Source: a bacterium (GTDB taxonomy: Bacteria; JAMOTN01). From it: DNA of 52,992 nucleotides. Below, piece after piece: positions 1,398 to 52,490 of the stretch. The position numbers were made by a program, and so were the translations under genes. A model generated the notes under the pieces. The model worked only from the letters and a program-made list of their open reading frames with translations. It was not told the DNA's origin and made no database searches. Where the stretch lies: NCBI GenBank assembly GCA_027062325.1, contig JAMOTN010000081.1, positions 1-52,992 of the forward strand, written 5' to 3'. Each line of letters starts with the position of its first letter. The stretch's first letter is position 1.

Positions 1398-1836
1398 TGC
1401 CTTGGTTTTGGTTGTACTGCTGTTTACATTTTTAATTTTGTTAGGATGCGGCTTTGAAAAGAAGAAAGTTTCTGGTGATTTATCTTCTGAGAACAAGGTT
1501 GAGTCTTGTGAACAAAGATCTACAAGTTTAGAATTTAGTTCTCCTATATCTGATTATTACATATTTAGAAGATGGCTTTCTGCGAATTCTGGATTTAGTA
1601 GTGATGATCTGGCAGTTTTGGAAAGGAGTTTCAAAGAAGTATTATTGGGTAGAAAAATGTATAAGGATTGGAAAAGAGAGTATTTGTGGTTAGTTAAACA
1701 GAATGAGAATGTGTTTATGGAGAGTGTACTTAAGAGTGAGTGGTTGAGGGAGAAGTTAAAAGAGTGGGTTAAAATTAAGAGTAAAGGTAGCATATTGAGG
1801 TTGAATCATGCAACTTATGAAGGTGATATAGAGTGA
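1363..1836 (+). CDS. predicted lipoprotein of unknown function
   Basis: The protein has 157 residues. A hydrophobic N-terminal segment ends in a lipobox (LILLGC), so it should be lipidated and anchored to a membrane. The mature part starts with a Ser/Glu-rich stretch and continues as a charged, helix-prone domain rich in Trp, Lys and Leu. No family is recognised. The start may be ATG 1363 or ATG 1372. The stop TGA overlaps the GTG start of the next gene by four bases (GTGA), a typical sign of translational coupling, so its role is probably linked to the pilin-like protein that follows. Confidence 0.6.
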   Translation: MAQMRLCLKGIDALVLVVLLFTFLILLGCGFEKKKVSGDLSSENKVESCEQRSTSLEFSSPISDYYIFRRWLSANSGFSSDDLAVLERSFKEVLLGRKMYKDWKREYLWLVKQNENVFMESVLKSEWLREKLKEWVKIKSKGSILRLNHATYEGDIE

Positions 1837-10446: not shown

Positions 10447-10482
10447 ATGTTAGGATGACAATAAAAGAGAGAGGTGAGAGTT

Positions 10483-12582
10483 ATGATGGGGTGTAAAAAT
10501 AGAATGATTGCTTTTCTTGTAAGTGTTTTGGTGTTTTCATATTTGAGTGCAGCAATTTCTATGTGGGAAGTTGTTTTTAAAAGTGGTCTTGTGGTAAGTG
10601 TGGACAGTTGGCAAAAACGGGGAGATAGTGTTGTTCTCGTTTTAAATGGTCATAAGATGAAATTTAGTACTAAGGATATTCTTCTTATAAGAAAGAGGAC
10701 TGAGTGGAGCGTTTCAAAGGAGGTTACTGGATCTGCTAGAAGAGAAAAGAGTAGGTTGCCTGAGAGAAAAGAGCCGTGGATTGAGGAGTTTGTCTCTGTT
10801 AAAGTTAACACTCATTTTGTAGATTTTGACAATTACAAGATTGTTACAGATGTACTGGCTGTTCCTTTTACTAAGAGTAGGTTTAAGGAGAAGTACAAAA
10901 AATTTATATATACTTGGACGCCTGCTTATGTTGACTTGAACTTTAAAGTTTGGGGAGATAAAAATGGTAAAATACTGAAGCCGGATCTTGAGACTTACGA
11001 AGATAACACCAAAATTGTTAGTAAGTACTTTCCTCCTTTAAGGGTTGTTCAATTCTCTCTTAAGGGTGCAACAGAGAAAAGCATAATATACCAGCACAAG
11101 GAGATGAAGCCTTCGAAGAAGAGACAGTTATTTAGGAGATTTGTGAGTTTTTACCCATCTGTGGGTTTGGGATTACTTCAGAATAAGAAGTTTGAATATA
11201 TTTTAAGAGTGCCAGACGGCAATGCAAAGCTTTACAAGAGAAATGATGGGTTTATAGCTGTTTCAGAGGAAAAAGATGGAGATGAGGTTGTTTATGAATT
11301 CAAAGGGGAGGCTTTGAATGGTATAGAGGAGTCGATTCCGCCGGCTTATATGTGGCAGACGGGAGTATTGGTTAAAAAAGGAAACTTTGAGAAGGAGCTT
11401 TCTGAGTATCTGGAGAAATTGGAGAAGGGTTGGTTAAATGCAGGGGTAGATTCCAGAGAAAGGGCAATTATTAGAGCTTTCTTAAAAACCACTGAAGGTA
11501 AGTTTAAACCCAGCAAAGTGTGGGCTGCTAAATTTCTTTACTGGTTGCAGAGGAATCTTCCTTTGAGAACCGTGTTTGTGAATAATGTTTATGATCCATA
11601 TCCAGAGAAGTTTTCTGATTTGATGAATGTCGTGTTTGGAAGTGGCGCTGTGTCTTCTGTTGGATTTGTTGTTGAGATGTATCGTTTATTTAAGTTGCTT
11701 GGTTATGATGTGCAGCTTGTTGTGGGAATTGAGCCTTATGTGCCAAGATTAGAGTGTGAGTTTCTTGAATTATTCAAAACTTTTGAAAATTTAGGAATGG
11801 CTTTAAGAATGAAAGATTTCTGGGTTATTCCAAATGGTTCGGTGTTTTCCAGCTATGTGTTTGATAAAACACCATTTCAATATATATTTAATAAGAGAAA
11901 GCAGAAGTTGATTTCTGTTAAGGATTATTACGAACCTTCTTTCGGCGGTAGCAAAAAGGTTTATTACGAGTTGAGTATAGGCAAGGACAAGGGGATTGGG
12001 AGAATCAAGATTTACTACGAAGCAGAAGATGCTGTTAGAGAGGCGTTGAGTTACCGTGGCAAGCTGCCGACGGAGATCAAAAGAAAGTTCCAGAGGTTAG
12101 TAAGTTACTTGGTTTCAGGTGCTAAAGTTATAGCTTATAAGTATGACGATATATACATGCCGGATGGAAAGTTTTGGGAGGAGGTCGAGTTTGAATTTGA
12201 TCCGAAAGATGTGGTTAAGGATTACGGAGAGTTTAAAGTTGTAAATGTTCCAGAATATCTTTTAAATGGTTATTTGGGTATGCCCAAGGAGTTGAAGAGA
12301 AAATATCCTTATTGGTTGGGAAATTGGGGTGTTGAGGATATAGAGATTGTGTTGAAGCTCAAAAATGGGAAGTTCATGAGTTTTCCAAAGAGCTTAAAGT
12401 ATGAAAAGCATGGACTGAGGGTGGTTGCAGATACTAAATTAAATGCTAACAAGCTTGTTCTAAAAAGGTTTATAAAATCTGTTCCTTACAAAGCCATAGT
12501 ATTTCCAAATGAGTGGTCCGGCTATGTGAAAAGTTACGTTGCAATGTTGAAAAAGTTATCTTCGCCGATAATTGTAAAATAG
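10483..12582 (+). CDS. exported DUF3857/transglutaminase-like protein, triad lost
   Basis: The protein has about 699 residues. It has a signal peptide, then a short beta domain (about 25-65) of the kind that begins 'charged-surface KSGLVVSVDS', a DUF3857-like domain and a degenerate transglutaminase fold. Where the upstream paralogue has FADCKGYATLLTALL, this one reads SGAVSSVGFVVEMYRLF, so the catalytic Cys is Ser or Val. No His or Asp equivalents stand out. It is probably a non-enzymatic partner. ATG 10483 is preferred over GTG 10474 because GAGGTG lies six bases upstream. It lies 36 bases after its paralogue, in one operon, and is closed by a strong terminator. Confidence 0.75.
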   Translation: MMGCKNRMIAFLVSVLVFSYLSAAISMWEVVFKSGLVVSVDSWQKRGDSVVLVLNGHKMKFSTKDILLIRKRTEWSVSKEVTGSARREKSRLPERKEPWIEEFVSVKVNTHFVDFDNYKIVTDVLAVPFTKSRFKEKYKKFIYTWTPAYVDLNFKVWGDKNGKILKPDLETYEDNTKIVSKYFPPLRVVQFSLKGATEKSIIYQHKEMKPSKKRQLFRRFVSFYPSVGLGLLQNKKFEYILRVPDGNAKLYKRNDGFIAVSEEKDGDEVVYEFKGEALNGIEESIPPAYMWQTGVLVKKGNFEKELSEYLEKLEKGWLNAGVDSRERAIIRAFLKTTEGKFKPSKVWAAKFLYWLQRNLPLRTVFVNNVYDPYPEKFSDLMNVVFGSGAVSSVGFVVEMYRLFKLLGYDVQLVVGIEPYVPRLECEFLELFKTFENLGMALRMKDFWVIPNGSVFSSYVFDKTPFQYIFNKRKQKLISVKDYYEPSFGGSKKVYYELSIGKDKGIGRIKIYYEAEDAVREALSYRGKLPTEIKRKFQRLVSYLVSGAKVIAYKYDDIYMPDGKFWEEVEFEFDPKDVVKDYGEFKVVNVPEYLLNGYLGMPKELKRKYPYWLGNWGVEDIEIVLKLKNGKFMSFPKSLKYEKHGLRVVADTKLNANKLVLKRFIKSVPYKAIVFPNEWSGYVKSYVAMLKKLSSPIIVK

Positions 12583-16879: not shown

Positions 16880-18628
16880 TTAAATATCTGGCACTATGTA
16901 GTTTGTCCTGTAGAATTTGTAGGTTACAATACCCGGTCCTGATAAATTGCTTCCATCCGCTTGAAGCTCCCACCAACCAACTTTTTCTAATTTTTCTGTT
17001 CCCATATAGAGGTTTAGACTATTTATTAGACCTGTGGTTGTTTGACCAATTTTGCAGGTGTAGTGCTGCTGTGGCGAGATTACTAAACCATCTCCTGAAT
17101 ATGTGGCAGTCAAAGCAGGTGGAGTTGCAGAGGCAGTTGAAAAGATCCAGTAATCTGTCAGTACTGGGTGTGGCATAACACTTACTATTGGTCCGGTATT
17201 TCCAATTGAATACGAAAATCTAGATGATTCGTATGGCCCTGCATAGTATACTATCATAACGGCATATAACCAGTTGGAGCCCAATTGAGATGCAGATAGG
17301 TATATTGTTCCAGAGTCTGTATGCTTTCTTACTACTTGAATTTCTCCTTGAGGAGTTAGTCCAGCGAGTTCAACGTACCATAAACCTCCCTCTTTGGCTT
17401 CGAACATTATGTTTTTATTACCAGATTCTGCAGGTTCAAGTAGAATGAATATTGCTCCATCCTTCTCAGTTGCATAAGTATAAGGGTTTGTTGGATAATG
17501 AGAGTGTATGTAGCTGACCTTGGGTTGCTTATGGAGGGTGAAGGATTTGAAGCGGTATGGATCGTATTTCATTATAGAATCAAAATACAAAGCGACATAC
17601 ATATCCCCAAGTAGATCTTGCCATTCGGGTCTAAAACCAGTTTTTAACTCAATAGAGTGCAGAAGGCTTTCAATTCCGTTTTTTTGATCTGCAACTAGTA
17701 GCCTCACAAAGTTCTGCTTTTCAAGATCGGTGTCCCCACCGTATCTATCTATAGCATAGGAAAGTAAACAGAATGCAGCTCCGTAGTCTGCAAGTCTTTC
17801 TTTCCAGATAGTGACTGATGTATTGGGGTTGTCGAGGTAACTATCAACATGAGAAAAGTGGTATCCAAATCCATTTACTACTTCTGCCCAGTCAGAAAGA
17901 GACTCATTTAACCAATCCTCCTCATCAGGATCGTGATTCCAATGGATCATGTGTTGGAATTCGTGTGCAAGTGTCGCGAGCTGTTCTTCTCCTCCAACAA
18001 CTGTGGGATAAACATCCATGTAAAACATCTCTTTTTCGTTACTATGCCCATTGTAAGGAGGAGCTGAGGCTACGGCTTCTGGAAGTTCATTGTAAAATGA
18101 GAAATATCCTATGTAGTATTCTCCTGTTTGTTCGTACCAGTCTTTAATGTCAAGTAACAGAATAAAAATTCTAGGATCTCCATCTATTCCCGGATTTGGT
18201 TCGTTTCCAAACCAAGCTGTATCTGTAGGATATATGTCGTTGTCAAACTTTGAACCTAATAGCTCTGCCTCAGTAGTAGTTACAAGATAAGCATCTCTCT
18301 CTGCTATAAAAACATAACAGTGAGTTCCAACGTATGCACAGCGTGCGGGGAGCAACTCATAAGATAAAGTTTGGAAGTTGTAGCTCCAAAAGTTTTCAAC
18401 ATCTCCCACGTTATAACTTCTTGACGCCGGATAAGTTGCTCTAGTTGGGAGACGAGTTTGGAGGGAGTTTTGCTCTTTTAGAGCTTGCCAAACTTTGACA
18501 AAGTCTTCTTTGGATACCATATCTTTAAAAAAGAATGTGGCACTTTTTCCGGCAGAGTAGGTGTATGAGAATATACTGAACACTACTGTGATTATCACTG
18601 AAAAAATACGACTCCTTGAAAAATTCAA
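16880..18628 (-). CDS. secreted zinc metalloprotease, M30 (hyicolysin-like) family
   Basis: This exported peptidase has about 582 residues. It has an N-terminal signal peptide, then a catalytic domain with HEFQH at residues 222-226 and a following DEEDWLNESLSDWAE segment that supplies the Glu, as in M30-type gluzincins. The C-terminal third is beta-rich and has no recognised name. The tracked GTG at 18637 sits directly on the GAGGAG, while TTG 18628 is eight bases behind it and is preferred. It follows flgG by about 40 bases on the same strand, so it may share that transcript. Confidence 0.82.
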   Translation of the reverse strand: MNFSRSRIFSVIITVVFSIFSYTYSAGKSATFFFKDMVSKEDFVKVWQALKEQNSLQTRLPTRATYPASRSYNVGDVENFWSYNFQTLSYELLPARCAYVGTHCYVFIAERDAYLVTTTEAELLGSKFDNDIYPTDTAWFGNEPNPGIDGDPRIFILLLDIKDWYEQTGEYYIGYFSFYNELPEAVASAPPYNGHSNEKEMFYMDVYPTVVGGEEQLATLAHEFQHMIHWNHDPDEEDWLNESLSDWAEVVNGFGYHFSHVDSYLDNPNTSVTIWKERLADYGAAFCLLSYAIDRYGGDTDLEKQNFVRLLVADQKNGIESLLHSIELKTGFRPEWQDLLGDMYVALYFDSIMKYDPYRFKSFTLHKQPKVSYIHSHYPTNPYTYATEKDGAIFILLEPAESGNKNIMFEAKEGGLWYVELAGLTPQGEIQVVRKHTDSGTIYLSASQLGSNWLYAVMIVYYAGPYESSRFSYSIGNTGPIVSVMPHPVLTDYWIFSTASATPPALTATYSGDGLVISPQQHYTCKIGQTTTGLINSLNLYMGTEKLEKVGWWELQADGSNLSGPGIVTYKFYRTNYIVPDI

Positions 18629-18670
18629 ACTCCCCACTCCTCGTTATTTAGGTTTTTTATATTTTTAGCT

Positions 18671-21952: not shown

Positions 21953-23425
21953 ATGAGGTTGGTGGTGCTTCTTTTTCTACTTCCTATTTTTTATCTCCTC
22001 TTTTTTATACTTTCTCCTCATAAGCTTAATTATATGGAAAGAAAGGATGGGGTTGTTTGGATTGATGATTCCCTAAGTGTGAGGAGTGTTTTTTCTCCTG
22101 AGGCTTTAAAAAAAGATTTAGAGGTAAAAGGTTATACAGTGAAGTTTTTTGAATTCCCGTGGCAAATTGATTATTCAAAAGCCTTGGCGGTTTTATCTGA
22201 TTTTATAGGAAGTGAGTGGAAAAATTACGAGCTGTACTCAGATAAGTTTTACCTATTGGATTTAAATGAAGACAAAAAGTATTTAAAGAAAATGGTCGGG
22301 AAAGTGTTGGATAACTCTTTTTCTAGTGGCGATGGTGGTTTTTTCTCAGTGGAATTTCCAAGAAGAGTTAGAGCGTTTCAAACTTTTGAAGTTGAGTTAA
22401 AGTTGAAAAATGCAAAAACTACTCCTGAACTTACTTTAAATTTTTACAAGAATGATTCGCCTGCTTTAAGAGTAGAATATTCATTGCTAAAAGAAAAATT
22501 GGCGATTGATAAGTATATTCTTCACTTGAATTTTAAAAAGGAAGGTTTGTGGAAGATAGAGGTTGGTTTGTGGCCCAAAGTCAAAGATCTTTTTACCTAT
22601 AATAATGCATTAGAATTGATTATTAGTTGTCATAAGAGGAACGATACTCTCTTGGTTGTGGAGCCTTCACCCCAAATAGCAAGGTTAGTTAGATTAGTAA
22701 GAAAATTTAGAAATTTTGATGTTGTATCTCCGTTTGAATTATCGGAGAATAGCCTGACTGGAAGAAAAGTTATTATTTGGTTGGGAAGTCTTGAGTTGCC
22801 AAGGTATAAGCAGATTTACGACGAAAAGGTTAAAAATTCTAGTGCCCTAGGAGTTTCTAACTTCCAAGTTTTAAATCTTACCAACCTTCGTGAAGATGAA
22901 GCTGTGTTTAGATTGATCAGAAATATAGACAAATTAAAAGGGGAAGCTTTGCGAACTGAATTTAAGGATGGAATTTTGTCATTAAGTTGTGGAACTGGAG
23001 AGATAACAATTGAAGAGATGCCGAATGATTACTTTGCTGGAAAAGATGTTGGTTATCCTATGGATGTGATAAAAAAGGTAAAGCTTGAGTCGAATTTTAA
23101 TTTTCGTGAGAAGAAACCTATCCTGCTAAGAGGGCCACTTTTGGATTATCATATTTTGCTTAAAAAATTGAGATTAAGTTTGCCGTTGTTGGTAATTTTT
23201 AAATCTGGTAGCTTGCTCCAAAAAAAAGTAGTACTTGGTTTTGAGCCACTCGATGAATTTGGAAAGCGTTACCTTGAGAAGCTTAAAATTTTTCGAATAG
23301 ATGAGTTTTCACCGGGAACAAAAATCGAGTGGTGGGGAGGTAGTTGGCGTTGGTATTACGCATTACCATTGGTATTTTATTTGTTGTTTTACTGGTATTA
23401 CAGGCTCAAACTTATTCAAAAATGA
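21953..23425 (+). CDS. membrane protein with VWA-like domain, BatA-type module
   Basis: The protein has 490 residues. It has an N-terminal membrane helix (1-22), a large extracytoplasmic part and a C-terminal helix (about 465-485). [10 protein letters not shown] is a D-x-S-x-S stretch like the MIDAS of von Willebrand A domains, and [13 protein letters not shown] resembles the later strand of BatA-like proteins. The rest of the MIDAS is not evident, so metal binding is uncertain. The following DUF4159 and DUF4175-like genes are the usual companions of BatA proteins. It begins 33 bases after tRNA-Ala and overlaps the next gene by 76 bases. Confidence 0.6.
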
Positions 23426-24021: not shown

Positions 24022-24038
24022 TGAGGTGAAATTATTTG

Positions 24039-26918
24039 ATGGAAAAAAACATGGATAAAGATGGGGAAGTGTTAAAAGCTGAGGTTAAAAGGATTATAAA
24101 AGAATATAACTTCTTAAAATCAGAGCGAATTTTAGACAAGTTTTTGAAAGCAATCTTGTTGTTTTATCCTCTGTTTGTGGTTTTAGGTGGGATTTTGAGT
24201 TTGTATTTTGAAATAGAATGGTTGATTTATTTTTTCATGATAGCTGGAGTGTTTATATGGGGGTATGCTGCTAAAACGGCTAAATTGGAAAGTGACCTTG
24301 CCTCTTATCTGGAGCTTTTAGAAAGGATAGAGGAATTTGATAAGTCTTGGAGAGAGAAGATAGTTATCTATTCTAAAAAGAGACAATCAGAATTTAGAGG
24401 TTTTTTAAAAAGTAGGTGGAAATGCTATGCGATTTGCTTTATTATTGCTGCTTCGCTTCTTTTATTTCCCTACGAGAGGTTAATCTCTGATCATAAGTTT
24501 ATAGTTAGAAAGTTGCCTAAAGGTTTTGAAGTTATTTGGAAAGATGGAGTTGTAAAGGTTAACTCTGTTTTGCAGAAGGAAAAAGGCAAGGTGTTGAATG
24601 AGGGGAGAGAGTTTTTTAGCTGGGGTAGAGAAAATGAAGTGGCCATGATTGAGTATAGGCATCAAGCTTTGTTTGGTGATGTATGTTACAAGAGGTTAAT
24701 AAAGCGTTTTGAACCGCCTAGAGTTTTGAACTTTATGGTTATGGTTAAGGGACCGAGTTATCTTAAGATGGAAAAGTCTAGGGAAAGGATATTTAAAAAT
24801 TATTCAGTATCTGCTTTGAAAGGGGCAACTGTTGAGATAAAAGTTGTGTATTCAAGTGTTCCCAAAAGAGTAATTTTACTTTCTGGAGATGGTAAAGGTG
24901 CAGGAAGTGCTAATTTTTATGTTAGTTTAACTCCTACTTCGCGTGAAGTGAAAATAAGTTTTGGGACGCGAAAGTTTGCTATTGGAGAGCATGCTTTTTA
25001 TTTAAAAGCGTTGTTTGATTGGGGAGGTACTTTTGAGGTTAAAAAGGTAGTTAGATTGAAGGTGCTTGAGGATAAGGCGCCTCAAATATTGGTACGTAGA
25101 GCAGTTTGGGATAGTGGAAATTTGTTCATTGAGGGAGAGGCGTTGGACGATTATGGAGTTGATAGGGTGCTGTTGAAGTTGGGAAGAGGTAAAGTAATTG
25201 AATTGTTTGAAGGGGAAAGAGCTTCCAGAGTGGTTGAGGTGAAGGGGACTTGGGAATGCTCGCTTTTTACCATTCCAGTGTTGGAGGTAGCTGATTTGGC
25301 TTCTAACGTTTCCTCGTTGGAAATTAGAATTGTTTATAAGTTATCTAACATCTCCGATGTGAAAAGTGCCTTGGAGAAGTTCAGAAGGGAACTAGAAAGG
25401 GAAGAAATGAGGACACTTCAGGAAAGTTACAACTTGAGTAGTTCTAAAAAAATGGATATAAGGGAAATGCTTAAGAGATTGGAGAAGTTGAAAAGACAAA
25501 GAGAGTTGCTTTTAAAAAAGATGAAGTATGCTCAAAAGGAACTTGAAAAGTACAAGAATTTCATGGAATATGCCAGAGTTCTGAAAAAAATAAAAGAGAG
25601 CTACAAACAACTCTTTTCCAGTGAAGAGATAAACATGCTTGAGAAGATGTTGAGACAGGCTATGAATTCAAAAGTTAATGCGGGTTACTTGAAATGGCAC
25701 GTTCATCAGAAGTTTAAAGAGTATGTTCAGGCTTTAAAAAATTACCAAAAGTTGCTTGAAAAGTTAGCTAAAATGGAGAGACTTACTAAAATGAGTGAAT
25801 TTCTTAAAAAAGCTGTGGAGAAACATGCTCCACTTAGAGATAAAAAGGCTGAAGAAAGTGCAGAAGAGTTAGCCAAAAAAATGCGGGAAATTTTTAGAAA
25901 CTTAGGTGATTCCGAATTGGAGAAGAGATTGAAATCTGCATTAAATAATCTCAGGTTAGAATCGGAGAACTATTCTTCAAATAGACATAGGAATTCTTTG
26001 AGGGCTTTAAATAATCTTAGGTCGGCCCTTGAAAATAAACTTAAAGATATGAAGGGGATGAAAAATGTATATCAGGCTTGTCATGCTGGATTGGTAGTTA
26101 TGTTTCTTACAGAAGGTATGGCAGGTTCACTTGGTTATGCTGAGAATATTTTTAGAAAAAGTCATTTGTTCAGAAAAAATTACAACTCTGCTATTAAGCA
26201 GAAGATTCCATATTTTGATTTTGTTGTCAGAAATTACTATGATTTGTTTGTATTTGCTCGAATTTTCCTTGAAAAGTTAAAAGTTGTGATGGATTCTAAT
26301 CCAATGATGGCGTTAAGACTTGGGAAATTGCCGTTGGAATTTGAGGTTTGTACTGGGCAACTTTATTCTAGTTGTCAAAATGGGAATTTGGAGTTTTCGC
26401 GTTACCTATCATGGAGATTACATGAATATGCTAAAAATATAATTTACATTTTAATTTCTTTGATGAATAGTAGTCCTTCAAAAATGATGATGCAAATGTT
26501 GATGCAACTTTTGAAGCAGCAGCAACAGATAAGTAAAGCTTTAAGCATGCCGCTTCCAGTCCCTGTTAGAATGCAGTTGAGTGAGAAGCAGCAGATGATT
26601 GCTCAACAATTGCAAAAGTTATCCTCTTTGCTTGAATGGTACAAGCAACTTCAAAAACAGCTTCAGGAGATAGAGTCTCAGATGCAGATGTTATCCCAAA
26701 TGTTAAGGCAAGGAAATCCGAATCGTAAGTTGGCAAAAGCAATTGTGCAGCGCCTTATGAAATCTATCAAGGCTTTGGAGGAAAAAAAGAGTGCTAAGAG
26801 AAAAGCTGTTGTTTACAAAGGTAAGGAGCCGTTGAGAAAAGAAAGAGGTTTTGGAGAGGAGGCTGTAAATTTGAAAAAAGCTCCAGCTGAGATAATGGAA
26901 TTGTGGAATAGTTTTTGA
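24039..26918 (+). CDS. DUF4175-like membrane protein with long coiled-coil tail
   Basis: The protein has about 959 residues. Two or three membrane helices lie near residues 30-75 and 130-150, followed by a beta-rich region (about 170-420) and a very long helical, coiled-coil part (about 430-940). That tail carries a Met/Gln-rich stretch (MMMQMLMQLLKQQQQ) and many Lys/Glu heptads. This layout matches DUF4175-type proteins of MoxR/BatA clusters. ATG 24039 is preferred over TTG 24036; GAGGTG lies upstream. The gene ends one base from the convergent 26920 gene. Confidence 0.65.
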   Translation: MEKNMDKDGEVLKAEVKRIIKEYNFLKSERILDKFLKAILLFYPLFVVLGGILSLYFEIEWLIYFFMIAGVFIWGYAAKTAKLESDLASYLELLERIEEFDKSWREKIVIYSKKRQSEFRGFLKSRWKCYAICFIIAASLLLFPYERLISDHKFIVRKLPKGFEVIWKDGVVKVNSVLQKEKGKVLNEGREFFSWGRENEVAMIEYRHQALFGDVCYKRLIKRFEPPRVLNFMVMVKGPSYLKMEKSRERIFKNYSVSALKGATVEIKVVYSSVPKRVILLSGDGKGAGSANFYVSLTPTSREVKISFGTRKFAIGEHAFYLKALFDWGGTFEVKKVVRLKVLEDKAPQILVRRAVWDSGNLFIEGEALDDYGVDRVLLKLGRGKVIELFEGERASRVVEVKGTWECSLFTIPVLEVADLASNVSSLEIRIVYKLSNISDVKSALEKFRRELEREEMRTLQESYNLSSSKKMDIREMLKRLEKLKRQRELLLKKMKYAQKELEKYKNFMEYARVLKKIKESYKQLFSSEEINMLEKMLRQAMNSKVNAGYLKWHVHQKFKEYVQALKNYQKLLEKLAKMERLTKMSEFLKKAVEKHAPLRDKKAEESAEELAKKMREIFRNLGDSELEKRLKSALNNLRLESENYSSNRHRNSLRALNNLRSALENKLKDMKGMKNVYQACHAGLVVMFLTEGMAGSLGYAENIFRKSHLFRKNYNSAIKQKIPYFDFVVRNYYDLFVFARIFLEKLKVVMDSNPMMALRLGKLPLEFEVCTGQLYSSCQNGNLEFSRYLSWRLHEYAKNIIYILISLMNSSPSKMMMQMLMQLLKQQQQISKALSMPLPVPVRMQLSEKQQMIAQQLQKLSSLLEWYKQLQKQLQEIESQMQMLSQMLRQGNPNRKLAKAIVQRLMKSIKALEEKKSAKRKAVVYKGKEPLRKERGFGEEAVNLKKAPAEIMELWNSF

Positions 26919-26919
26919 T

Positions 26920-27687
26920 TTATAGTTTTTTCTTCAATAAGAATTCCACATCCTCTTCTGTAAGTGAGAAACCGAACGTGTATTCACCTATATTAAAAAG
27001 AGTTTTGATACTTTTATCGAGCGATGTTATCTCAAGGAGGGAGTTTTTTATTGGAATTTTCACGGAAAATAATGGATACCATGTATCATCTTCGTCACGT
27101 CCTACCCCTGTAGTGAAGTTAATGGTTCTATAAACTCCATTCAATCCAACTCTGAATGCAAATGGTAACTTATAGCTTGAAGATGCTGTTGCAACGTTCA
27201 TGAGTTTGAATAGAAGTTTGGAGTACTCTTTAAAGTTTAATTCTAGATCTATGTCTACTCCTCCTATTACAGTATTGTCGTTTTTTTCAGCGAATAGTGA
27301 TGGAATTACCGTTAGATTTCGCCAATTTATTATTTGATGATATGCGGTGTATATTGATACTATGCTTTTTTCTTCAGCAATGTTATCTTCCATAACTATT
27401 GCGTCTATGGGTGTGAGAGTGAATTCTATAAATGATGAATTTGATGCCTCTTGTGTCTTTATTAAATTGAAATTTACTGGTGTTGAGAAGAATAAGTTTT
27501 GAATATCAGTAGTGACTGCAACTCCCATACTTTTATCCCGTTCTACAGAAAAGGTAGGTGAATTTACCAAGAGTTTAGTGAAGCTTGAGGTTGAGGTGGC
27601 CACAAATGTGAATAACAAAAGAGGGATGATGATTAAGCGAGGGTTTGTAAGTATGCGATGTTTAATTGTAATTTTATTACCTTGCAT
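26920..27687 (-). CDS. exported beta-rich protein of unknown function
   Basis: The protein has 255 residues. Residues about 15-30 are hydrophobic, after a basic start, so it is exported. The mature part alternates strands with Phe/Ile/Val and short polar turns, which would fit a small outer-membrane barrel, but the C-terminus is LLKKKL rather than an aromatic. It is not assigned to a family. AGGGAGG lies before the ATG. It follows the M6 protease by 58 bases and is probably in its operon. Confidence 0.5.
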   Translation of the reverse strand: MQGNKITIKHRILTNPRLIIIPLLLFTFVATSTSSFTKLLVNSPTFSVERDKSMGVAVTTDIQNLFFSTPVNFNLIKTQEASNSSFIEFTLTPIDAIVMEDNIAEEKSIVSIYTAYHQIINWRNLTVIPSLFAEKNDNTVIGGVDIDLELNFKEYSKLLFKLMNVATASSSYKLPFAFRVGLNGVYRTINFTTGVGRDEDDTWYPLFSVKIPIKNSLLEITSLDKSIKTLFNIGEYTFGFSLTEEDVEFLLKKKL

Positions 27688-36882: not shown

Positions 36883-39800
36883 GTGAGAGAGGAATTTTTG
36901 AAAATATCAACCTCTAACAGGATTATTTTAAGACATAGTAGAGGAGTTTTTGTGCGTGGTTTGGTTTTAGCTGCTACTTTGATTGTCTTGGTTTTTAATA
37001 CTTTTGCATATAGGGTTATTATAAATGAATTTTCTGATCCAAGACTTTCATCTGGTTGGATAGAGTTAAAGTGCTTAGATGATGACGGTGGCGCGGGAGT
37101 TGATGTTTCTTCGTGGACGGTAACGGATCTTGATGGAGCGGAGGCTCCGTTGAGTTCAGCTGGAAGCGTTACTATGTATGCTACAGATCTTCCAGCAACT
37201 CCATGGGATGATAGGTTTGTTGTAGTTCACTGGGGAGTTAGTGGTGATGATGAAGTTGATGGTTCAGGGGATTTAAATGAAAATGGAGTGAGGGATATAT
37301 ACCTTGGGGGACCTGGATTTGGTAGTGCAGATCAGATGGTAATAGATACAGATACTAATTATTCCAATGGAGGCTTTGTGGATGCAGTTGTGTTTACAAA
37401 TGGAAGCGCTTATGATCTCTCAGATGTTGATAATTATTTGGTGCCAGCTGGTCAATGGGTAGTTGAGAATGGATTATGCTCACTTTCTGATACTGTTGAT
37501 CTTTCACCTTATAAACTTGGAGTTTACGTTGCACGCGATACTATATCCACAGATACTAATACTAAATTTGACTGGCATGCAGTTAATTTTTCAACTCCCG
37601 GGAGCGATAATGAGGGAGTTGGAAGTGCTGCTGACGGTACAGGCGTGTTGGAAAGTTATCTTCCTACTTCAATTGATCCTTCTGTTGATACTAATTTTTC
37701 ACTTGTGATGCGAGGGCAAATTGCTGCTACAGTAGAGGAGGTTGCGTTGGAAATACCTGACTATTGGATTTGGAGTTGGAATGAAGATGATGTTGTTGTT
37801 TCGGGAAGTGCTATTAAGGCTTCTACACGTGTAACCATTGATCAGACTTCCAGAAGAATTATTTTGAATGGAGTGGTTTTGATTCCTACTACCGAGGTCC
37901 AGGTAAATCTCTACGGTTTAAAGTCGCCGTCGATTATTCTCACGGCTTCTAGTGAGTTTGCGCAATTTAAGGTTTTAACGGCAGGATATTTAGGAAAACT
38001 TACGAAGGCGTTTGTATGTCCTGTTCGTGTTGGAAAGCGTTCGTGGAAGTCAATAAAGATTGTGATAAATGAGTTTAAAAAAGGTGACTTTTTAGAGTTG
38101 TACATTAAAGATGATGGGAATAATGGAAAAGGTGTAGATATATCTGGTTTACAAGTATGTGTGAATTCAACACTAGTAAAACTTGTAGAGAATCTTGTGG
38201 TTTTTAGTGGTTCATATGTAGTGTTGAAAAATAATGTTGAGGATTCAAATTTGGCTAATCCCGTGGCTTACTTGAATTTTAACAGATCTTATGAGTGGAG
38301 AGATGATACGAGTATATGTATTCAAGATGATTCAGGGAAGATTTTAGATGCACTTTTAATGTCAGATTATGATGGAAATACTGAAAATTCTGAATTTCAG
38401 AGAATTTGGGAGGCTGGAGAGTGGAAGTGTTTTGCAGATTCCTGCGCTGTTTCTGTGAAGGAAATTGATTGGAGTTCCCAGTCGGTTGCACGACTTTGGG
38501 GGGCGGTAGATACCAATCGTGCTTCTGATTTTAGAGTTACTTATTTGGTAAGTGAGGGATTGGAGAACAAGGATGTTGGATTCCCTAAAAGGATACTTAT
38601 AAATGAAGTTAAGTTCAAAGGTGAGGATCAGTTTATAGAATTAAAAGCTTTGGAGGATGGTAATTTTAAAGAGTACAGAGTTTGTATGGGAAATACTGTT
38701 TTAAAAGTTTTGCCGGATGTAGAGATACCGCGCAATACGTATATTGTGCTGTGGTTAAAAAATGGATTAGATGAGCTGGATGCTTCAGATGGTGTTGTTA
38801 ACTTATATACAAATTTTACAGCTCTCAATCCTGAAGATGGACAGATAGTTTTGTATGACAATCAAGGTGGAATAATGGATGCGGTGTGCTACAGTAATGG
38901 AGATTTGACTGAAACTGATACTGCTTTTGTGGATTGGTTGGTTCAAAAAAATGCTTGGTTTGCTAATTTTGGATACGAAGCAGAGTATTGCGTTGATTCT
39001 AATATTTCCGAAGAGTGTGCTATAACGAGAAATGAGCTTGCCAATGATACAAATACAAAGAATGACTGGTATTGCCGCTATCCAACAGCGGGGAAAGCTG
39101 CAAATGTTTTACAAACTGCGGTTGAAATAAAAGCCACTTCAAATTTGGAAGTTAATACCAATCAATTATATTGGCTTGAATTTTGGGTAGCAGATGCTTA
39201 TGGTAAACCTGTAAACTATCCAGCTCCCCTTGAAGTTTTGACCTCAAATAGCTCTATAAAAGTTTCCAATGATGCGCTTACTTGGAGTAATAAAGTTGAG
39301 GTTATGCCAAGTGGAAAAACTGGAGTTTGGCTCAAAGTAGAGGATTTAACAGATCCTGTGTTTGTGCTTATCAGAGATACAATTTCTCAGCTTGGAAGTG
39401 TTAAGGTGTCTATAACCAAATACAATGAAGCGGATATATTGGTAACTGAACTTATGGCGGAGCCGCCTAATGGATGGAGTAAGTCCAACCTAACGTGGAT
39501 AGAAATTTATAATTACACAACTAAAGAGGTTGATTTAGCTTCTTATAAATTAAGAGTTAAGAGTATAACAGGAGATGTGGTTAGGGAATACTCGTTGCCT
39601 GCATTAACTTTGAGACCGGGGGAGGTTGCATGCTTGGTTTCTCAGCTTGAAGACGATGATGATGCGGATGGTGTTTCTTTTTCAACATTTTACGGTAATA
39701 GAGATGGCGTGTGGGATGAAAAAGATGGATTTAGAGCATGGCAGATTGATGGATTGGAACTGGAGGAGAATAGTATCCTTGAATTTATAGATGAGGTTCA

Positions 39801-41346
39801 TGGTAAGCGAATAGCACTTTACATACCGCGCGGAAAAGGAGCGGTTGCTTACAAAGTGTCAGAACCTGCTGATTTTACAGCTTCATTTAATGATGCTTTG
39901 CTCAGTAAATTCACCGAGTATGGTAATCCCGGTATAGTAGATAATTTATCCATAGGATTGAATGTTTGTGCTCCAAAGGTTGTAGATTATCGCAATAAGC
40001 TTATTATTTCTGCAGTTTCAGATGTGGAGCCAAATCTTTATTGGAGGATAGGGAAATACAATCCAACTTTGCAGAAAATGGTGAAAGTAGGTGATACTTG
40101 GCAGGCTGTCTTTGATGTATCCAGCTGGAAAGATTCGACTTTTGAATTTTACGTGGAGGCAGGAAGAGAGAGGTATCCACAAGAAGGGTATGCAAAAGTT
40201 TTGATAAAAGATGATACTACTCAGTTGGTATTGCTTATGTCTTCATCTCAAATCGCTAAGGATTCATGGGCTACTTTGAGTGTATATCTTCAAGGAGATT
40301 ATGAAGGTAGTGAGTTGAATTTTTACATAAATGTCCCTGATGGAATATGGATAGATGATGCGAATGCTCAAAGGCCAGGAGTTCAGGCCTATGTGTATCA
40401 GGGATTTGATTTTCAGAATGAGTATAGTGGTGGGGAGTTTGCTTTTACCTTGCAGAATAGGTACGGATTTAAAGAGGGAAAACTTATTGATATAGTTTTC
40501 AAGGTGAGTAAGAACAGTGAGATAAATGATGTCTTGGAGTTTAATCTTGTTTCAGATGTAAATGCAAGTAAAGTTGTTGTAAAAGTTTTGGAAGAGGGGA
40601 GTGCTTACATAACTTATGAAGGAGGAGTTGTTTTTGGTCCTTATTCATCTTCTCTTACAATTCCTCCAGCAGCTTTGGACAGCGGGGCTGAAATTTCCAT
40701 TAAAAGATTGAGTTTGAATGAGGTGCCATCGGTTAATAATTTAGAAGATTATCATGTGAAGGTAGCTAATATTGTTTACGGCCTCTATCCCGATGATATT
40801 GAATTTTTAAAACCTTGTGTATTTTCAATATACATTACCTCAGATGAATTGGCAGAAGCAGGAATTGGAGATTCTGAAACATTGATACTTTATCGCTGGT
40901 TTGAAAATGAAGGAAAGTGGATTGCCGTGGATACACTTAGAGTTACGCGTAGTGGATATTACACAGCTGATATATCTAAAGGAGGCCTGTACGTTGTTGG
41001 TTCTGGAGTTGTTTCGTATACTGAGTTTGCGTTTTCTGGTTTAGAGGTTTATCCCCGAGTGTTCAATCCCGATGAGATAGATTTGAGTGGTGAGCTAAAG
41101 TTCCAGTATTTTGTCAGTTTTCCAGCACGCGTTGAGTTTAAGATTTACAATTCGCGTGGTATAAAGGTTAAGGAATTTACAGTAAATGCAGTAGCAGGAG
41201 TCAATACTGCTTGGTGGGATGGAAGAGATAATGGTGGTAAAGTGGTAAAAAGCGGAATATACATTGTTGTTGCGAAAGCTTATGATGAGAGTAGTGGAAA
41301 GTACATAAGGCAAAAAAAGGCATTTGTAATAAAAAGAAATAGGTGA
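36883..41346 (+). CDS. giant surface protein with lamin-tail and FlgD-like domains
   Basis: The 1487-residue protein has a signal peptide followed by four lamin-tail-like (LTD) units that begin VIINEFSDPRLS (~45), IVINEFKKGDFL (~391), ILINEVKFKGEDQ (~571) and ILVTELMAEPPNG (~851). The C-terminus (about 1386-1487) is a FlgD-like immunoglobulin sandwich with WDGRDNGGKVVKSGIYIV, as in surface proteins sorted by type IX-like systems. Start 36883 (GTG, GGAGG) is used. GTG 36952 has an equally good GAGGAG and gives a cleaner signal peptide. It is followed at once by a PorV-like barrel. Confidence 0.8.
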   Translation: MREEFLKISTSNRIILRHSRGVFVRGLVLAATLIVLVFNTFAYRVIINEFSDPRLSSGWIELKCLDDDGGAGVDVSSWTVTDLDGAEAPLSSAGSVTMYATDLPATPWDDRFVVVHWGVSGDDEVDGSGDLNENGVRDIYLGGPGFGSADQMVIDTDTNYSNGGFVDAVVFTNGSAYDLSDVDNYLVPAGQWVVENGLCSLSDTVDLSPYKLGVYVARDTISTDTNTKFDWHAVNFSTPGSDNEGVGSAADGTGVLESYLPTSIDPSVDTNFSLVMRGQIAATVEEVALEIPDYWIWSWNEDDVVVSGSAIKASTRVTIDQTSRRIILNGVVLIPTTEVQVNLYGLKSPSIILTASSEFAQFKVLTAGYLGKLTKAFVCPVRVGKRSWKSIKIVINEFKKGDFLELYIKDDGNNGKGVDISGLQVCVNSTLVKLVENLVVFSGSYVVLKNNVEDSNLANPVAYLNFNRSYEWRDDTSICIQDDSGKILDALLMSDYDGNTENSEFQRIWEAGEWKCFADSCAVSVKEIDWSSQSVARLWGAVDTNRASDFRVTYLVSEGLENKDVGFPKRILINEVKFKGEDQFIELKALEDGNFKEYRVCMGNTVLKVLPDVEIPRNTYIVLWLKNGLDELDASDGVVNLYTNFTALNPEDGQIVLYDNQGGIMDAVCYSNGDLTETDTAFVDWLVQKNAWFANFGYEAEYCVDSNISEECAITRNELANDTNTKNDWYCRYPTAGKAANVLQTAVEIKATSNLEVNTNQLYWLEFWVADAYGKPVNYPAPLEVLTSNSSIKVSNDALTWSNKVEVMPSGKTGVWLKVEDLTDPVFVLIRDTISQLGSVKVSITKYNEADILVTELMAEPPNGWSKSNLTWIEIYNYTTKEVDLASYKLRVKSITGDVVREYSLPALTLRPGEVACLVSQLEDDDDADGVSFSTFYGNRDGVWDEKDGFRAWQIDGLELEENSILEFIDEVHGKRIALYIPRGKGAVAYKVSEPADFTASFNDALLSKFTEYGNPGIVDNLSIGLNVCAPKVVDYRNKLIISAVSDVEPNLYWRIGKYNPTLQKMVKVGDTWQAVFDVSSWKDSTFEFYVEAGRERYPQEGYAKVLIKDDTTQLVLLMSSSQIAKDSWATLSVYLQGDYEGSELNFYINVPDGIWIDDANAQRPGVQAYVYQGFDFQNEYSGGEFAFTLQNRYGFKEGKLIDIVFKVSKNSEINDVLEFNLVSDVNASKVVVKVLEEGSAYITYEGGVVFGPYSSSLTIPPAALDSGAEISIKRLSLNEVPSVNNLEDYHVKVANIVYGLYPDDIEFLKPCVFSIYITSDELAEAGIGDSETLILYRWFENEGKWIAVDTLRVTRSGYYTADISKGGLYVVGSGVVSYTEFAFSGLEVYPRVFNPDEIDLSGELKFQYFVSFPARVEFKIYNSRGIKVKEFTVNAVAGVNTAWWDGRDNGGKVVKSGIYIVVAKAYDESSGKYIRQKKAFVIKRNR

Positions 41347-48077: not shown

Positions 48078-48193
48078 TATAATTAGAAGCGGAGGGGTAA
48101 AGTGCCTCTCCATGTCAATAATTAATATGGGAGGTGGTAATGTAAATGCCGGCTAATGGCAAGTGGGAGGTGATGAGGTATGAAAAGAGTTAG
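48078..48193 (+). promoter_or_regulatory. leader of the 808-residue gene: -10, hairpin and short ORFs
   Basis: A perfect TATAAT (48078-48083) is followed by a hairpin (GGAGGGGT/GCCTCTCC, 48091-48111). Then come two short ORFs: 14 codons from ATG 48112, and 15 codons from ATG 48146 (MPANGKWEVMRYEKS) behind a strong GGGAGGTGG. The second overlaps the start of the main gene by 14 bases in another frame. GGGAGGTGAT then serves the main ATG at 48180. It looks like a translational leader, but this is inference. Confidence 0.4.
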
Positions 48194-50606
48194 ACGTATA
48201 ATAAGTACGACTATTTTGGTGCTGTTTTTACTAAGTTTTGTTGTAGATTTGAACGTTTACGCGGTTGTAATAGATGATTTTGGCGCTCCTAAGACAGGGC
48301 AGTGGGTTACAAGTTCTGGTAAAGTTGTGGAGGGAGTTGGAAGGTTTGAAATTTGGAAAGATGGTCAGCTCAGATGGGTTGTGAGGTCGGATAGTGGTCG
48401 TATTTTAACATGGGGTAAAGCTTTTATTGAAAAGTGGGCTGATGGTAGATCAAGAGTAGTTGTCAGAGACTCTGCTGGGAGATTCAAAACGTGGAAGTTT
48501 TTGGATAACCTTGGATTGGGAAGCGGTGGCTCGACGACTTCATCAGCTTCGACTCAAGCACCAAGTGCAACTCATACTGGTGCTGCGTCCCAAGGAGAAA
48601 TAAGCGTATCAGGTCACAATAATGCTCCAATTGTTAATATTGAGCATGCAAATACGGTCAATGTATACGTTGGCTCAAATGGTGATGTTCAGGGAGTTCA
48701 GGTTATAGAAGCTCAACCGATGACTCCAACTCCTGATAATACTGTGCAAACTTCTGTAAATCCTCCGGCAGGAGCTGCAGATGTATCTCAGCCTGTTGCT
48801 TCTGATCAGACTCCGGCAATTCAAGCTGGAGAGAGCAGTACTGTTAGTGGAACTCAACCTCAGCCGGTTAATAATGCTCAGGCTGCTAATACTCAGGCTT
48901 CTCAGCAAGTGAGCGCTCCTTCACAGGATGTGGCAACTACTCAGCAATCTCAGCCAACTACGCAGTCTAGCCAGTCGGTAGACACTGCAGCTCCAGCAGC
49001 TCCAAGTGATCAGGCAGCTCAAACGACTCAACCGGCAACTCAGCCAGCTACGGGCAATGCTCAGGCATCATCTCCATCAACTCCGGCTACTGAAACGGCT
49101 CCCTCAACTGGTGTAGCTGGAGGTTCGTCAGCAGATTCTCAAGGGACTCAGATGGTTGAGTCATCTTCATCTTCTCCTGCCTCATCTAATGCTTCTTCAA
49201 GTTCAGCTGGGGAAGCAGCTGGGACTATTGCTAGTGGAACAGGTGCAGCAGGAAATGAGGTAGTAGGTACAGGATCAGATACAGCAGGAGCATCCGGAGA
49301 TAATGTTGATATTGAGGTGGATGATGGTGTTGATGTGTCTTCTCCGGTTGATGAAGTTGCAGATAGCAGCACAGATGTATCGACGGATAATGATGCAGCT
49401 GACAATATCTCTGATGAGGCTGAGGCAGTTTCTGATCAGAGTAATCAGACCGATCAAAATGCGGCTGGAGCAGATGAGGCTGTTGCAGCTGGAGATGAGG
49501 CATCTACTCCTGATGAGGGAATATCAGATGATGCTTCTTCGGTGAATGCAGATGATAATGCCCAAGCTTCAGCGGGAGCCGAAAGCGATACTGCTAACTC
49601 TTCCGAATCTCAAGAAAAGACACCTTATCAAAAGGGATACGAATGGGGTTACAAGGTGACAGATGCTGCAATAAAAGCAGGAACTCAGAGTTTAAAAACA
49701 AGCTTTTCTCCAAAGACAATGCTTCTTTCTGCTGGTGTAACAGTGGGAATTAGAGTTCTTAAGGGAGAGAGTCCAATAAAGGCTGTAAAGTATCTTGCAA
49801 CCGGAGAATACCTTGGAGGATATGTTGGTGGTGCGTTGGGAACTGCTACAGGGGCAGCTTTGGGAGCAGCTTTAACGGTTGGCGTTCCGGTAGTTGGTCC
49901 AATAGTTGGAGCGTTTATGCCTGCAATTGGTGGAGCAATAGGTTCTGCGTTTGGTTCTGGAATAGGAGATGCAATGCAACATGGTAGAAAGGTTAGTTTA
50001 AAACAGATATGGAATAACATGGATAAGACGATGTTGGTTGCGTCGGCTATAGGTTCTACGCTTGGAGGAATGGCTGGGTCTGTGCTTGGACCTGTTGGAA
50101 CTATTGTTGGAAGTATGGTCGGAAGCTGGGTTGCAGGAAAGGTTGTGGGACTTATAAGAGGAAAGAAGGCGCCTGTTACTGGTGCGTATCCTGTGTTGAT
50201 AAAAGGACAGAAGGGAATAGTTGTTGGCGTCAAATTTGAGGGAGATGCTTTTGCGGATCATCCGGCAACTTATGAGAGTGAGGTGGGACATGTTGACTAC
50301 ACGTTCGAGCCGGTTCATTATGGAACTACGAGCTCTGAGGTTGTTATAAAGGGGAATAGCATAAAAGAGTATGCTCAGGAAGGAAAAGTTATTAAGTTCA
50401 GTGTTGAGAGAGATTGTGCTAATATGGATGAGGTTAACGAGAAGTTTGTAGCAACTTACAAGTTGTACTTGAAGTACTTAAAAGAAGGGAAACTTGGGAC
50501 TCCGGAAGGGCGTCAGGTGTTGAGAGCTTTTAGACAGATGGAAGCCCTCTACAAATTCTGCACCAGGAATGTGTCGTTGAAAAAGGGTAAAGGAAAGGGT
50601 AAATAG
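48180..50606 (+). CDS. secreted protein with W-repeats, low-complexity linker and glycine zippers
   Basis: The 808-residue protein has a signal peptide (1-28) and a tandem repeat (56-78 and 83-105) of W-x-D-G-x2-R-x-V-V-R-x3-G-R-x2-T-W. A Ser/Thr/Ala/Gln-rich linker of about 360 residues follows, turning acidic near its end (EVDDGVDVSSPVDEVA). Then come two glycine-zipper stretches (about 543-662; GGYVGGALGTATGAALGAAL), a beta/helix C-terminal domain and a KKGKGKGK tail. No family is known to me. Glycine zippers often insert in membranes or form pores, which is suggestive but unproven. It is a single-gene unit with its own leader and terminator. Confidence 0.75.
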   Translation: MKRVRRIISTTILVLFLLSFVVDLNVYAVVIDDFGAPKTGQWVTSSGKVVEGVGRFEIWKDGQLRWVVRSDSGRILTWGKAFIEKWADGRSRVVVRDSAGRFKTWKFLDNLGLGSGGSTTSSASTQAPSATHTGAASQGEISVSGHNNAPIVNIEHANTVNVYVGSNGDVQGVQVIEAQPMTPTPDNTVQTSVNPPAGAADVSQPVASDQTPAIQAGESSTVSGTQPQPVNNAQAANTQASQQVSAPSQDVATTQQSQPTTQSSQSVDTAAPAAPSDQAAQTTQPATQPATGNAQASSPSTPATETAPSTGVAGGSSADSQGTQMVESSSSSPASSNASSSSAGEAAGTIASGTGAAGNEVVGTGSDTAGASGDNVDIEVDDGVDVSSPVDEVADSSTDVSTDNDAADNISDEAEAVSDQSNQTDQNAAGADEAVAAGDEASTPDEGISDDASSVNADDNAQASAGAESDTANSSESQEKTPYQKGYEWGYKVTDAAIKAGTQSLKTSFSPKTMLLSAGVTVGIRVLKGESPIKAVKYLATGEYLGGYVGGALGTATGAALGAALTVGVPVVGPIVGAFMPAIGGAIGSAFGSGIGDAMQHGRKVSLKQIWNNMDKTMLVASAIGSTLGGMAGSVLGPVGTIVGSMVGSWVAGKVVGLIRGKKAPVTGAYPVLIKGQKGIVVGVKFEGDAFADHPATYESEVGHVDYTFEPVHYGTTSSEVVIKGNSIKEYAQEGKVIKFSVERDCANMDEVNEKFVATYKLYLKYLKEGKLGTPEGRQVLRAFRQMEALYKFCTRNVSLKKGKGKGK

Positions 50607-50646
50607 CTAAAGTATAGCGTGAACCATAGAGCTTAGTGCTTAAGTA

Positions 50647-50677
50647 GGGGTGGCTGATTGTCAGCTGCCCCTTTTTT
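50647..50677 (+). terminator. rho-independent terminator
   Basis: GGGGTGGCTGA pairs with TCAGCTGCCCC (two G-U pairs) around a TTG loop and runs into TTTTTT. It closes the 808-residue gene, 40 bases after its stop. Confidence 0.9.
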
Positions 50678-50773
50678 ATTTTTAAAGTAATTTATCTCAA
50701 GGGAATTTCATCTTTTAGTTTATAATTTTAAAAAAATGGAGTGCTTGGCTTTTGATAGTGGGGGGTGGAAGTT

Positions 50774-51989: not shown

Positions 51990-52442
51990 TTACTTGTTAA
52001 GTATATAACGAACAGTACCTTTTGCTTCTTTTACTTTGCGAAAGACTCTCTTATAATAATTAACCTTCTCAGAGTTATAGTTCTTTGCTTGAATAGTCCA
52101 AAACTTTACAGTTTGCAATATGTCGTCGAGTAAATTCTCAACTTCGAACACCAATGCCTTATTGCCTGAGTTTTTTCTCGCTATCTTCTCAAGTAACTCT
52201 ATAACCTTTTCGTTCCCGTTATCAATTGCTACGGCCACACGACTGCTAACTTCTCCGAAAACTTTGAAATAATTTGCTAAAAGCTTTGGATTGTTAATAG
52301 ATTCCTTTCTAAGTTTTGCCAACTGAATTAACTTAGACTTGAGCCAATTGAAAGGAATAAAGTTAGAGTTTGCAAACACTCCCAAACCTACTGTCAGTAT
52401 TAAAACTAAAACTACTTTTTTGAACAAGCCTAGATTCTTCAT
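51990..52442 (-). CDS. small secreted helical protein of unknown function
   Basis: The protein has about 150 residues: a signal peptide ending near GVFAN, then a helical, Lys/Glu-rich body with no Cys. No family is recognised. The track start is GTG 52451. ATG 52442 has CAGGAGGTGG directly upstream and is preferred. A TTGACA promoter candidate lies about 50-80 bases upstream. It is a single gene, convergent with the alcohol dehydrogenase across a shared terminator. Confidence 0.6.
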   Translation of the reverse strand: MKNLGLFKKVVLVLILTVGLGVFANSNFIPFNWLKSKLIQLAKLRKESINNPKLLANYFKVFGEVSSRVAVAIDNGNEKVIELLEKIARKNSGNKALVFEVENLLDDILQTVKFWTIQAKNYNSEKVNYYKRVFRKVKEAKGTVRYILNK

Positions 52443-52490
52443 CTTGACCACCTCCTGATCTCCTTACTCTCCATTTTGGTCCTTCATTCT

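What the first reader, a model, noticed from the sequence alone, without database searches (positions are those of the whole stretch)
48078..50606. 808-residue secreted protein with W-repeats, low-complexity linker and glycine zippers
No known family fits. A 27-residue repeat with a W-DG-R-VVR-GR-TW pattern, a 360-residue disordered linker that turns acidic, two glycine-zipper stretches and a separate C-terminal domain form an uncommon design. It could be a pore-forming surface effector, adhesin or tethered toxin. It has its own leader and terminator, so it is tightly controlled.
Basis: partly seen in the sequence, partly recalled or inferred. Interest (0 to 1): 0.7.

Follow-up and report, generated by a model that had tools for sequence, protein, structure and literature searches.

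The report
Undescribed modular cell-envelope protein family
This gene encodes an exported cell-envelope protein built from four separate modules; it is not a one-off, because whole-protein relatives exist in a distant bacterial lineage, and its last module is a small helical hairpin that both lineages also attach to cell-wall enzymes and other exported proteins.

Summary
The 808-codon ORF (48180-50606) has a signal peptide, two 27-residue W repeats, a 358-residue linker with no K or R that turns acidic, two uncharged glycine-zipper stretches, a C-terminal domain and a strong terminator. No Pfam, NCBIfam, PADLOC or PDB family fits.

It is not an orphan. A profile of residues 478-808 finds a large undescribed family in 37 of 114 genomes around one distant lineage, including all 24 genomes of one taxonomic family (2-12 copies each). 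Three orthologues in that lineage share the whole design, W repeats included (53-58% identity there).

The C-terminal domain is a helical hairpin (Y-x2-Y ... Y) that also occurs on other exported proteins: lytic transglycosylase, C39 peptidase, L,D-transpeptidase, PLD-like and zincin enzymes. Four hairpin proteins lie in this genome; of 289 other genomes only that lineage's representative has several, and two have one marginal hit.

Best reading: a diderm cell-envelope or surface scaffold. The zipper associates with membrane and oligomerises, the hairpin targets the envelope, the linker displays the W-repeat module. A toxin is unlikely: no immunity gene, and the C-terminus is conserved while the N-terminus varies. 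Function itself is inferred.

The parts
48078..48179 (+). Untranslated leader with a duplicated Shine-Dalgarno-like element (TGGGAGGTGGTAATGTA / TGGGAGGTGATGAGGTA) and a possible 15-codon upstream ORF (48146-48193) overlapping the main start
   Evidence: read; repeat D5; no significant RNA fold; conservation not tested
48180..50606 (+). The 808-codon gene
   Evidence: GC3 0.30 as in neighbouring genes, so composition is native
48180..48263 (+). Sec-type signal peptide, residues 1-28 (MKRVRR..LVLFLLSFVVDLNVYA), no lipobox
   Evidence: sequence; hydropathy up to 2.2; dedicated predictor not available
48348..48509 (+). Two W repeats of 27 residues (57-83, 84-110)
   Evidence: shuffle test; six-strand beta meander, core pLDDT 75-88; same module in L075 and in standalone multi-repeat secreted proteins
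48531..49604 (+). Low-complexity linker, residues 118-475, no K/R, acidic second half
49611..49808 (+). Entry to the conserved core, residues 478-543: GYEWGYKV...SLKTSFSPKTMLLSAGVTVGIRVLKGESPIKAVKYLATGE
   Evidence: conserved across family alignment A2
49809..49967 (+). Glycine-zipper stretch 1, residues 544-596, 53 uncharged residues, predicted helical pair
50028..50138 (+). Glycine-zipper stretch 2, residues 617-653, 37 uncharged residues, predicted helical pair
50160..50423 (+). Variable spacer between zipper and hairpin, residues 661-748
   Evidence: poorly conserved in A2; low pLDDT
50424..50588 (+). C-terminal helical hairpin, residues 749-803, motif TYKLYLKYLKEGK...Y: the module shared with other exported proteins
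   Evidence: pLDDT about 80; profiles A3 and A4
50646..50682 (+). Intrinsic terminator

Best explanation
The gene encodes a Sec-exported cell-envelope scaffold or anchor of a diderm bacterium. The signal peptide is removed. The glycine-zipper domain, two pairs of helices, inserts into or lies against a membrane and packs into oligomers. The C-terminal helical hairpin is a docking module, shared with many exported wall- and lipid-acting enzymes, that brings the protein to the envelope (peptidoglycan or an envelope receptor). The long linker, free of positive charge and then acidic, holds the N-terminal W-repeat beta module away from the anchor, probably at the surface, where it binds a ligand or partner. 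Shown by sequence: the modules, the family, the sharing of the hairpin, the diderm host. Inferred: export, membrane insertion, oligomerisation, the hairpin's docking role, the W module's binding role.
For: Family with conserved zipper plus C-terminal hairpin and exchangeable N-terminal parts: low-complexity linkers, HETGH zincin-like domain, helical domains, or almost nothing. Full-architecture orthologues in G315, G319 and G323. A second hairpin protein with an Ala/Gly-rich membrane-like stretch in the same genome, with same-architecture relatives in G315 and G319. A hairpin profile (A3) built from zipper-family proteins and that second protein finds 20 hits outside the A1 zipper set in the fetched loci, 19 with signal-peptide-like N-termini (39% in non-hit ORFs) and 19 with the hairpin near one end; reversed sequences give no hit. 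Enzyme partners: SH3_3 + C39, SLT, YkuD + SH3_3, PLDc_2; HELGH zincin-like. G000 has Omp85 and three secretins, so it has an outer membrane. By a rough biological-scale sum the zipper segments are much less hydrophobic than the signal peptide, +2.6 to +4.9 against -0.4 (scale values from memory), compatible with passing the inner membrane.
Against: No experiment. The zipper structure model has low confidence (mean pLDDT 45.5). No direct evidence for which membrane, for oligomers, or for what the hairpin or W repeats bind. The hairpin is short and helical, so part of its spread could be convergence, although control genomes are nearly empty. Signal peptides were scored with a crude rule only.
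Confidence: 0.5

Rival explanations
1. It is a substrate or accessory of a type II secretion / type IV pilus machine: the W-repeat and linker part is secreted to the outside as an adhesin or matrix protein, with the hairpin acting as a recognition or retention signal.
For: In one taxonomic family the linker-type paralogue lies beside a pilin/pseudopilin-like cluster in several genomes. In two W-repeat orthologue loci a GspF/PilC-like gene lies in the conserved neighbourhood, and G319 has a secretin on the same contig as its orthologue. G000 has three secretins.
Against: Orientation of the neighbours changes between genomes, the pilin and GspF calls rest on reading the sequence rather than on a profile search, and the window gene itself has no pilus or secretion neighbours.
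Confidence: 0.2
2. The zipper domain forms an alpha-helical pore or channel in the cell's own outer membrane, gated or positioned by the hairpin and the W-repeat domain.
For: Dense GxxxGxxxG motifs far above chance; weak similarity of members to Gly-zipper_Omp, best E 4.9e-6, and of one member to TraT.
Against: Glycine zippers also mediate simple helix packing; other paralogues carry an enzyme-like domain on the same zipper domain; no channel model could be computed.
Confidence: 0.14
3. It is a pore-forming, contact-dependent or tethered antibacterial toxin.
For: A glycine zipper is essential for toxicity of TelE (PMC10434224), and CdzC/D are surface-associated glycine-zipper toxins (PMC5380434).
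Against: No immunity gene or operon; C-terminus conserved and N-terminus variable; universal and multi-copy in one taxonomic family; no PADLOC match; same zipper domain joined to a zincin-like domain in paralogues.
Confidence: 0.08
4. The zipper part is phage-derived (tape measure or tail lysin).
For: PHROG matches of members to tail tape-measure and tail-lysin families at E 1e-7 to 1e-9.
Against: Matches cover only short hydrophobic stretches of much longer phage profiles; no tblastn match in 50,697 phage records; no phage genes beside it; signal peptide present.
Confidence: 0.02

Closest known systems
Gly-zipper_Omp (PF13488) and related envelope glycine-zipper domains (Gly-zipper_YMGG, TraT)
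   Same: Repeated GxxxG helices in exported envelope proteins; 13 of 18 family members match PF13488 at E<=0.01
   Different: The window protein scores below the curated cut-off (15.8 against 25 bits); the domain here is larger, with two zipper pairs, conserved connecting motifs and a C-terminal hairpin
Lineage-wide C-terminal sorting tags such as MYXO-CTERM (PMC11980579, abstract)
   Same: A terminal module spread over many unrelated exported proteins of one lineage
   Different: The hairpin has no conserved cysteine or terminal transmembrane helix, and it also sits directly after the signal peptide or, once, between domains
Glycine-zipper toxins TelE (PMC10434224) and CdzC/D (PMC5380434)
   Same: Dense glycine zipper in a secreted or surface protein
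   Different: No immunity partner, conserved C-terminus with variable N-terminus; toxicity untested
YegP / UPF0339 fold (2k8e, 2k49)
   Same: Top structural match of the W-repeat model, a repeated beta meander
   Different: Foldseek E 0.057, TM-score 0.27: not significant

Membership tests
Undescribed zipper-hairpin family defined here | Conserved zipper core with its connecting motifs | tested here: met
   single-sequence hits to G118 at E 4e-26 to 4e-11; alignments A1 and A2; 37 of 114 genomes around G118
Undescribed zipper-hairpin family defined here | Extreme C-terminal helical hairpin with Y-x2-Y ... Y | tested here: met
   A3 alignment; all 55 zipper proteins with a hairpin hit have it at the C-terminus
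Undescribed zipper-hairpin family defined here | N-terminal signal peptide | tested here: met
   51 of 55 pass a crude test, the window protein by inspection; no SignalP run
Gly-zipper_Omp (PF13488) | Score above the curated Pfam cut-off of 25 bits | tested here: not met
   15.8 bits, E 0.014
Polymorphic or contact-dependent toxin | Adjacent immunity gene | tested here: not met
   neighbours are amidohydrolase and Fe-ADH, terminator between gene and Fe-ADH
Polymorphic or contact-dependent toxin | Conserved N-terminal trafficking part, variable C-terminal toxin | tested here: not met
   opposite pattern
Pore-forming glycine-zipper toxin | Membrane permeabilisation on expression | not testable with these tools
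   needs an experiment
Phage tape measure protein | Related phage proteins along the length, phage gene context | tested here: not met
   no tblastn match in phages; neighbours are metabolic genes
MYXO-CTERM-type sorting tag | Invariant cysteine followed by a terminal hydrophobic helix | tested here: not met
   no conserved cysteine and no terminal hydrophobic helix in A3 or A4

The most novel reading that the evidence does not exclude
The Y-x2-Y hairpin is a previously undescribed general envelope-targeting or sorting module, used at either end of exported proteins in at least two deep lineages of diderm bacteria; the window protein is a membrane-scaffold carrier of it, and wall enzymes, lipases and proteases dock to the same receptor.
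Probability: 0.35. Interest if true: 0.75.

Novelty: new variant of a known kind. Interest (0 to 1): 0.5.

Why it matters
It turns an apparent orphan into a member of a widespread, uncurated envelope protein family, and exposes a shared terminal module that may be the address label for part of the exported proteome of two poorly known lineages. If the hairpin's receptor is found, localisation of dozens of proteins in uncultured bacteria becomes predictable from sequence. It also shows two lineages sharing envelope modules that nearly every other sampled genome lacks, through deep ancestry or ancient transfer.

Tried and rejected
Whole-protein search of 41 sampled genomes and of genome contigs found nothing; the segment search of 290 genomes succeeded. 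Viral contigs with A1: none. Phages by tblastn: none. Plasmids with the W repeats: none. NCBIfam, Pfam and PDB by sequence: no family for the window protein. The amidohydrolase scan, meant to name the host lineage, returned only distant Bacteroidota. Mfd is about equally distant (around 40% identity) from all sampled lineages, so it gives no placement. The G158 hit was a short zipper inside an unrelated long protein and was discarded. Foldseek on the low-confidence zipper model gave nothing. Recent transfer by composition: not supported, GC3 is native. An internal duplication of the zipper was suspected from the motif order but the pairwise test was spoiled by overlapping segments, so it is not claimed.

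Full report
Observation. The gene is 48180-50606 (+), 808 codons. Residues 1-28 read as a Sec signal peptide without lipobox. Residues 57-83 and 84-110 are two W repeats of 27 residues (alignment score 64, maximum of 500 shuffles 49). Residues 118-475 form a linker with no K or R, 47 D/E and one aromatic, acidic from about 358 on. Residues 541-660 hold 9 GxxxGxxxG motifs against a shuffle mean of 1.3; the two uncharged stretches are 544-596 and 617-653. A strong intrinsic terminator follows. The leader shows no significant fold. The gene's third-position GC (0.30) matches its neighbours, so its high GC comes from amino-acid content.

Known families. Pfam, NCBIfam and PADLOC give no family for the protein. 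The zipper part reaches Gly-zipper_Omp only below the cut-off (15.8 against 25 bits). PDB sequence searches find nothing significant for the window protein; the family profile meets only de novo helical bundles, at the hairpin, at E about 0.001.

Relatives. Residues 478-808 find four homologues in genome G118 (best E 4e-26). A profile of these with the window protein (A1) matches 37 of 114 genomes around G118: all 24 of taxonomic family f119 with 2-12 copies each, all sampled members of f225, f226 and f228, and the single members of f227 and f229, but not f224 or f205. A wider profile (A2) over 386 genomes finds long matches only in the window's genome, G118 and G314; six other genomes give only short zipper matches of some 70-90 residues.

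Architecture. L075 (G319, f226) and its counterparts in G315 and G323 carry the same order of parts as the window protein, with 53-58% identity in the W repeats. In other paralogues the zipper and hairpin are kept while the N-terminal part changes: linkers behind a GQWV...YNVRYVNG motif, a HETGH zincin-like domain, a helical domain, or almost nothing. The W repeat also occurs without the zipper in small secreted proteins with three repeats. The W part of the window protein is predicted as a six-strand beta meander (pLDDT 75-88 over most of the core); its nearest fold, YegP, is not a significant match.

The hairpin. The last 60 residues of the family align as a helical hairpin with two invariant tyrosines, Y-x2-Y, and a third near the end (A3); in the window protein it is the only confidently predicted part of the C-terminal model. 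A3 finds four places in the window's genome, 13-21 in five genomes of the G118 lineage, and none in five control genomes. A broader profile (A4) over 290 genomes finds 4 in the window's genome, 12 in G118, and one hit each in two others. Hairpin proteins outside the zipper family include a lytic transglycosylase (SLT) and an SH3_3 + C39 peptidase protein in the window's own genome, and an L,D-transpeptidase, PLD-like enzymes and HELGH zincin-like proteins elsewhere. Among 20 such proteins in the fetched loci, 19 have signal-peptide-like N-termini (39% of non-hit ORFs) and 19 have the hairpin near one end; reversed sequences give no hit. Caution: these loci were chosen by the hairpin, so the number of proteins is not a census, and three of the 20 rest on minimal zipper-like proteins; the signal-peptide excess was not selected for.

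Mechanism. The window's genome has Omp85 and three secretins, hence an outer membrane. The simplest account is an exported envelope scaffold: zipper in or on a membrane, hairpin docking to the envelope component that the wall enzymes also use, linker as spacer, W repeats as the outward binding part. The sharing of the hairpin with wall-active enzymes is shown; docking is inferred. A loose neighbourhood link with pilin-like, GspF-like and secretin genes in relatives leaves a secretion-machine role open. The toxin reading is disfavoured by context, conservation pattern and universality.

Novelty. The curated libraries hold no family for this zipper-hairpin architecture or for the hairpin; literature searches in the open-access library found no description, though that library is partial. 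I call it a new variant of a known kind: envelope proteins with glycine zippers, and terminal targeting modules, are known in principle; this family and this module are not.

Noticed in passing
window 48146-48193: Possible 15-codon upstream ORF (MPANGKWEVMRYEKS) with its own Shine-Dalgarno-like sequence, overlapping the start of the 808-codon gene; an ATG-TAA start-stop lies just before it (48140-48145).
   Followed up: no
G000 C54, locus L117 1501-2532 (-), next to polA: Second hairpin exported protein of the same genome: Ala/Gly-rich membrane-like stretch, basic linker, hairpin; same architecture in G315 and G319 (L145, L156).
   Followed up: partly
L046, L050, L057, L061, L070: The linker-type paralogue lies beside a pilin/pseudopilin-like gene cluster in several genomes, with changing orientation.
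   Followed up: partly
L048, L052, L062 (about 800 aa): Conserved paralogue group joining a HETGH zincin-like peptidase, without a Pfam assignment, to the zipper and hairpin.
   Followed up: partly
L090-L104: Small secreted proteins with about three W repeats, often followed by a helical domain, one or two per genome.
   Followed up: partly
window 1833-4433, 10474-12582, 16880-18637, 21953-23425, 24036-26918, 26920-27687: Several large ORFs without any Pfam match at E 0.01 in the same window.
   Followed up: no
window 36883-41346: 1487-aa protein with lamin-tail domain and C-terminal FlgD_ig domain, followed by porin-like and HHH_3 genes.
   Followed up: no
window 51990-52451 (-): 153-aa protein with a signal-peptide-like start and no Pfam family.
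   Followed up: no
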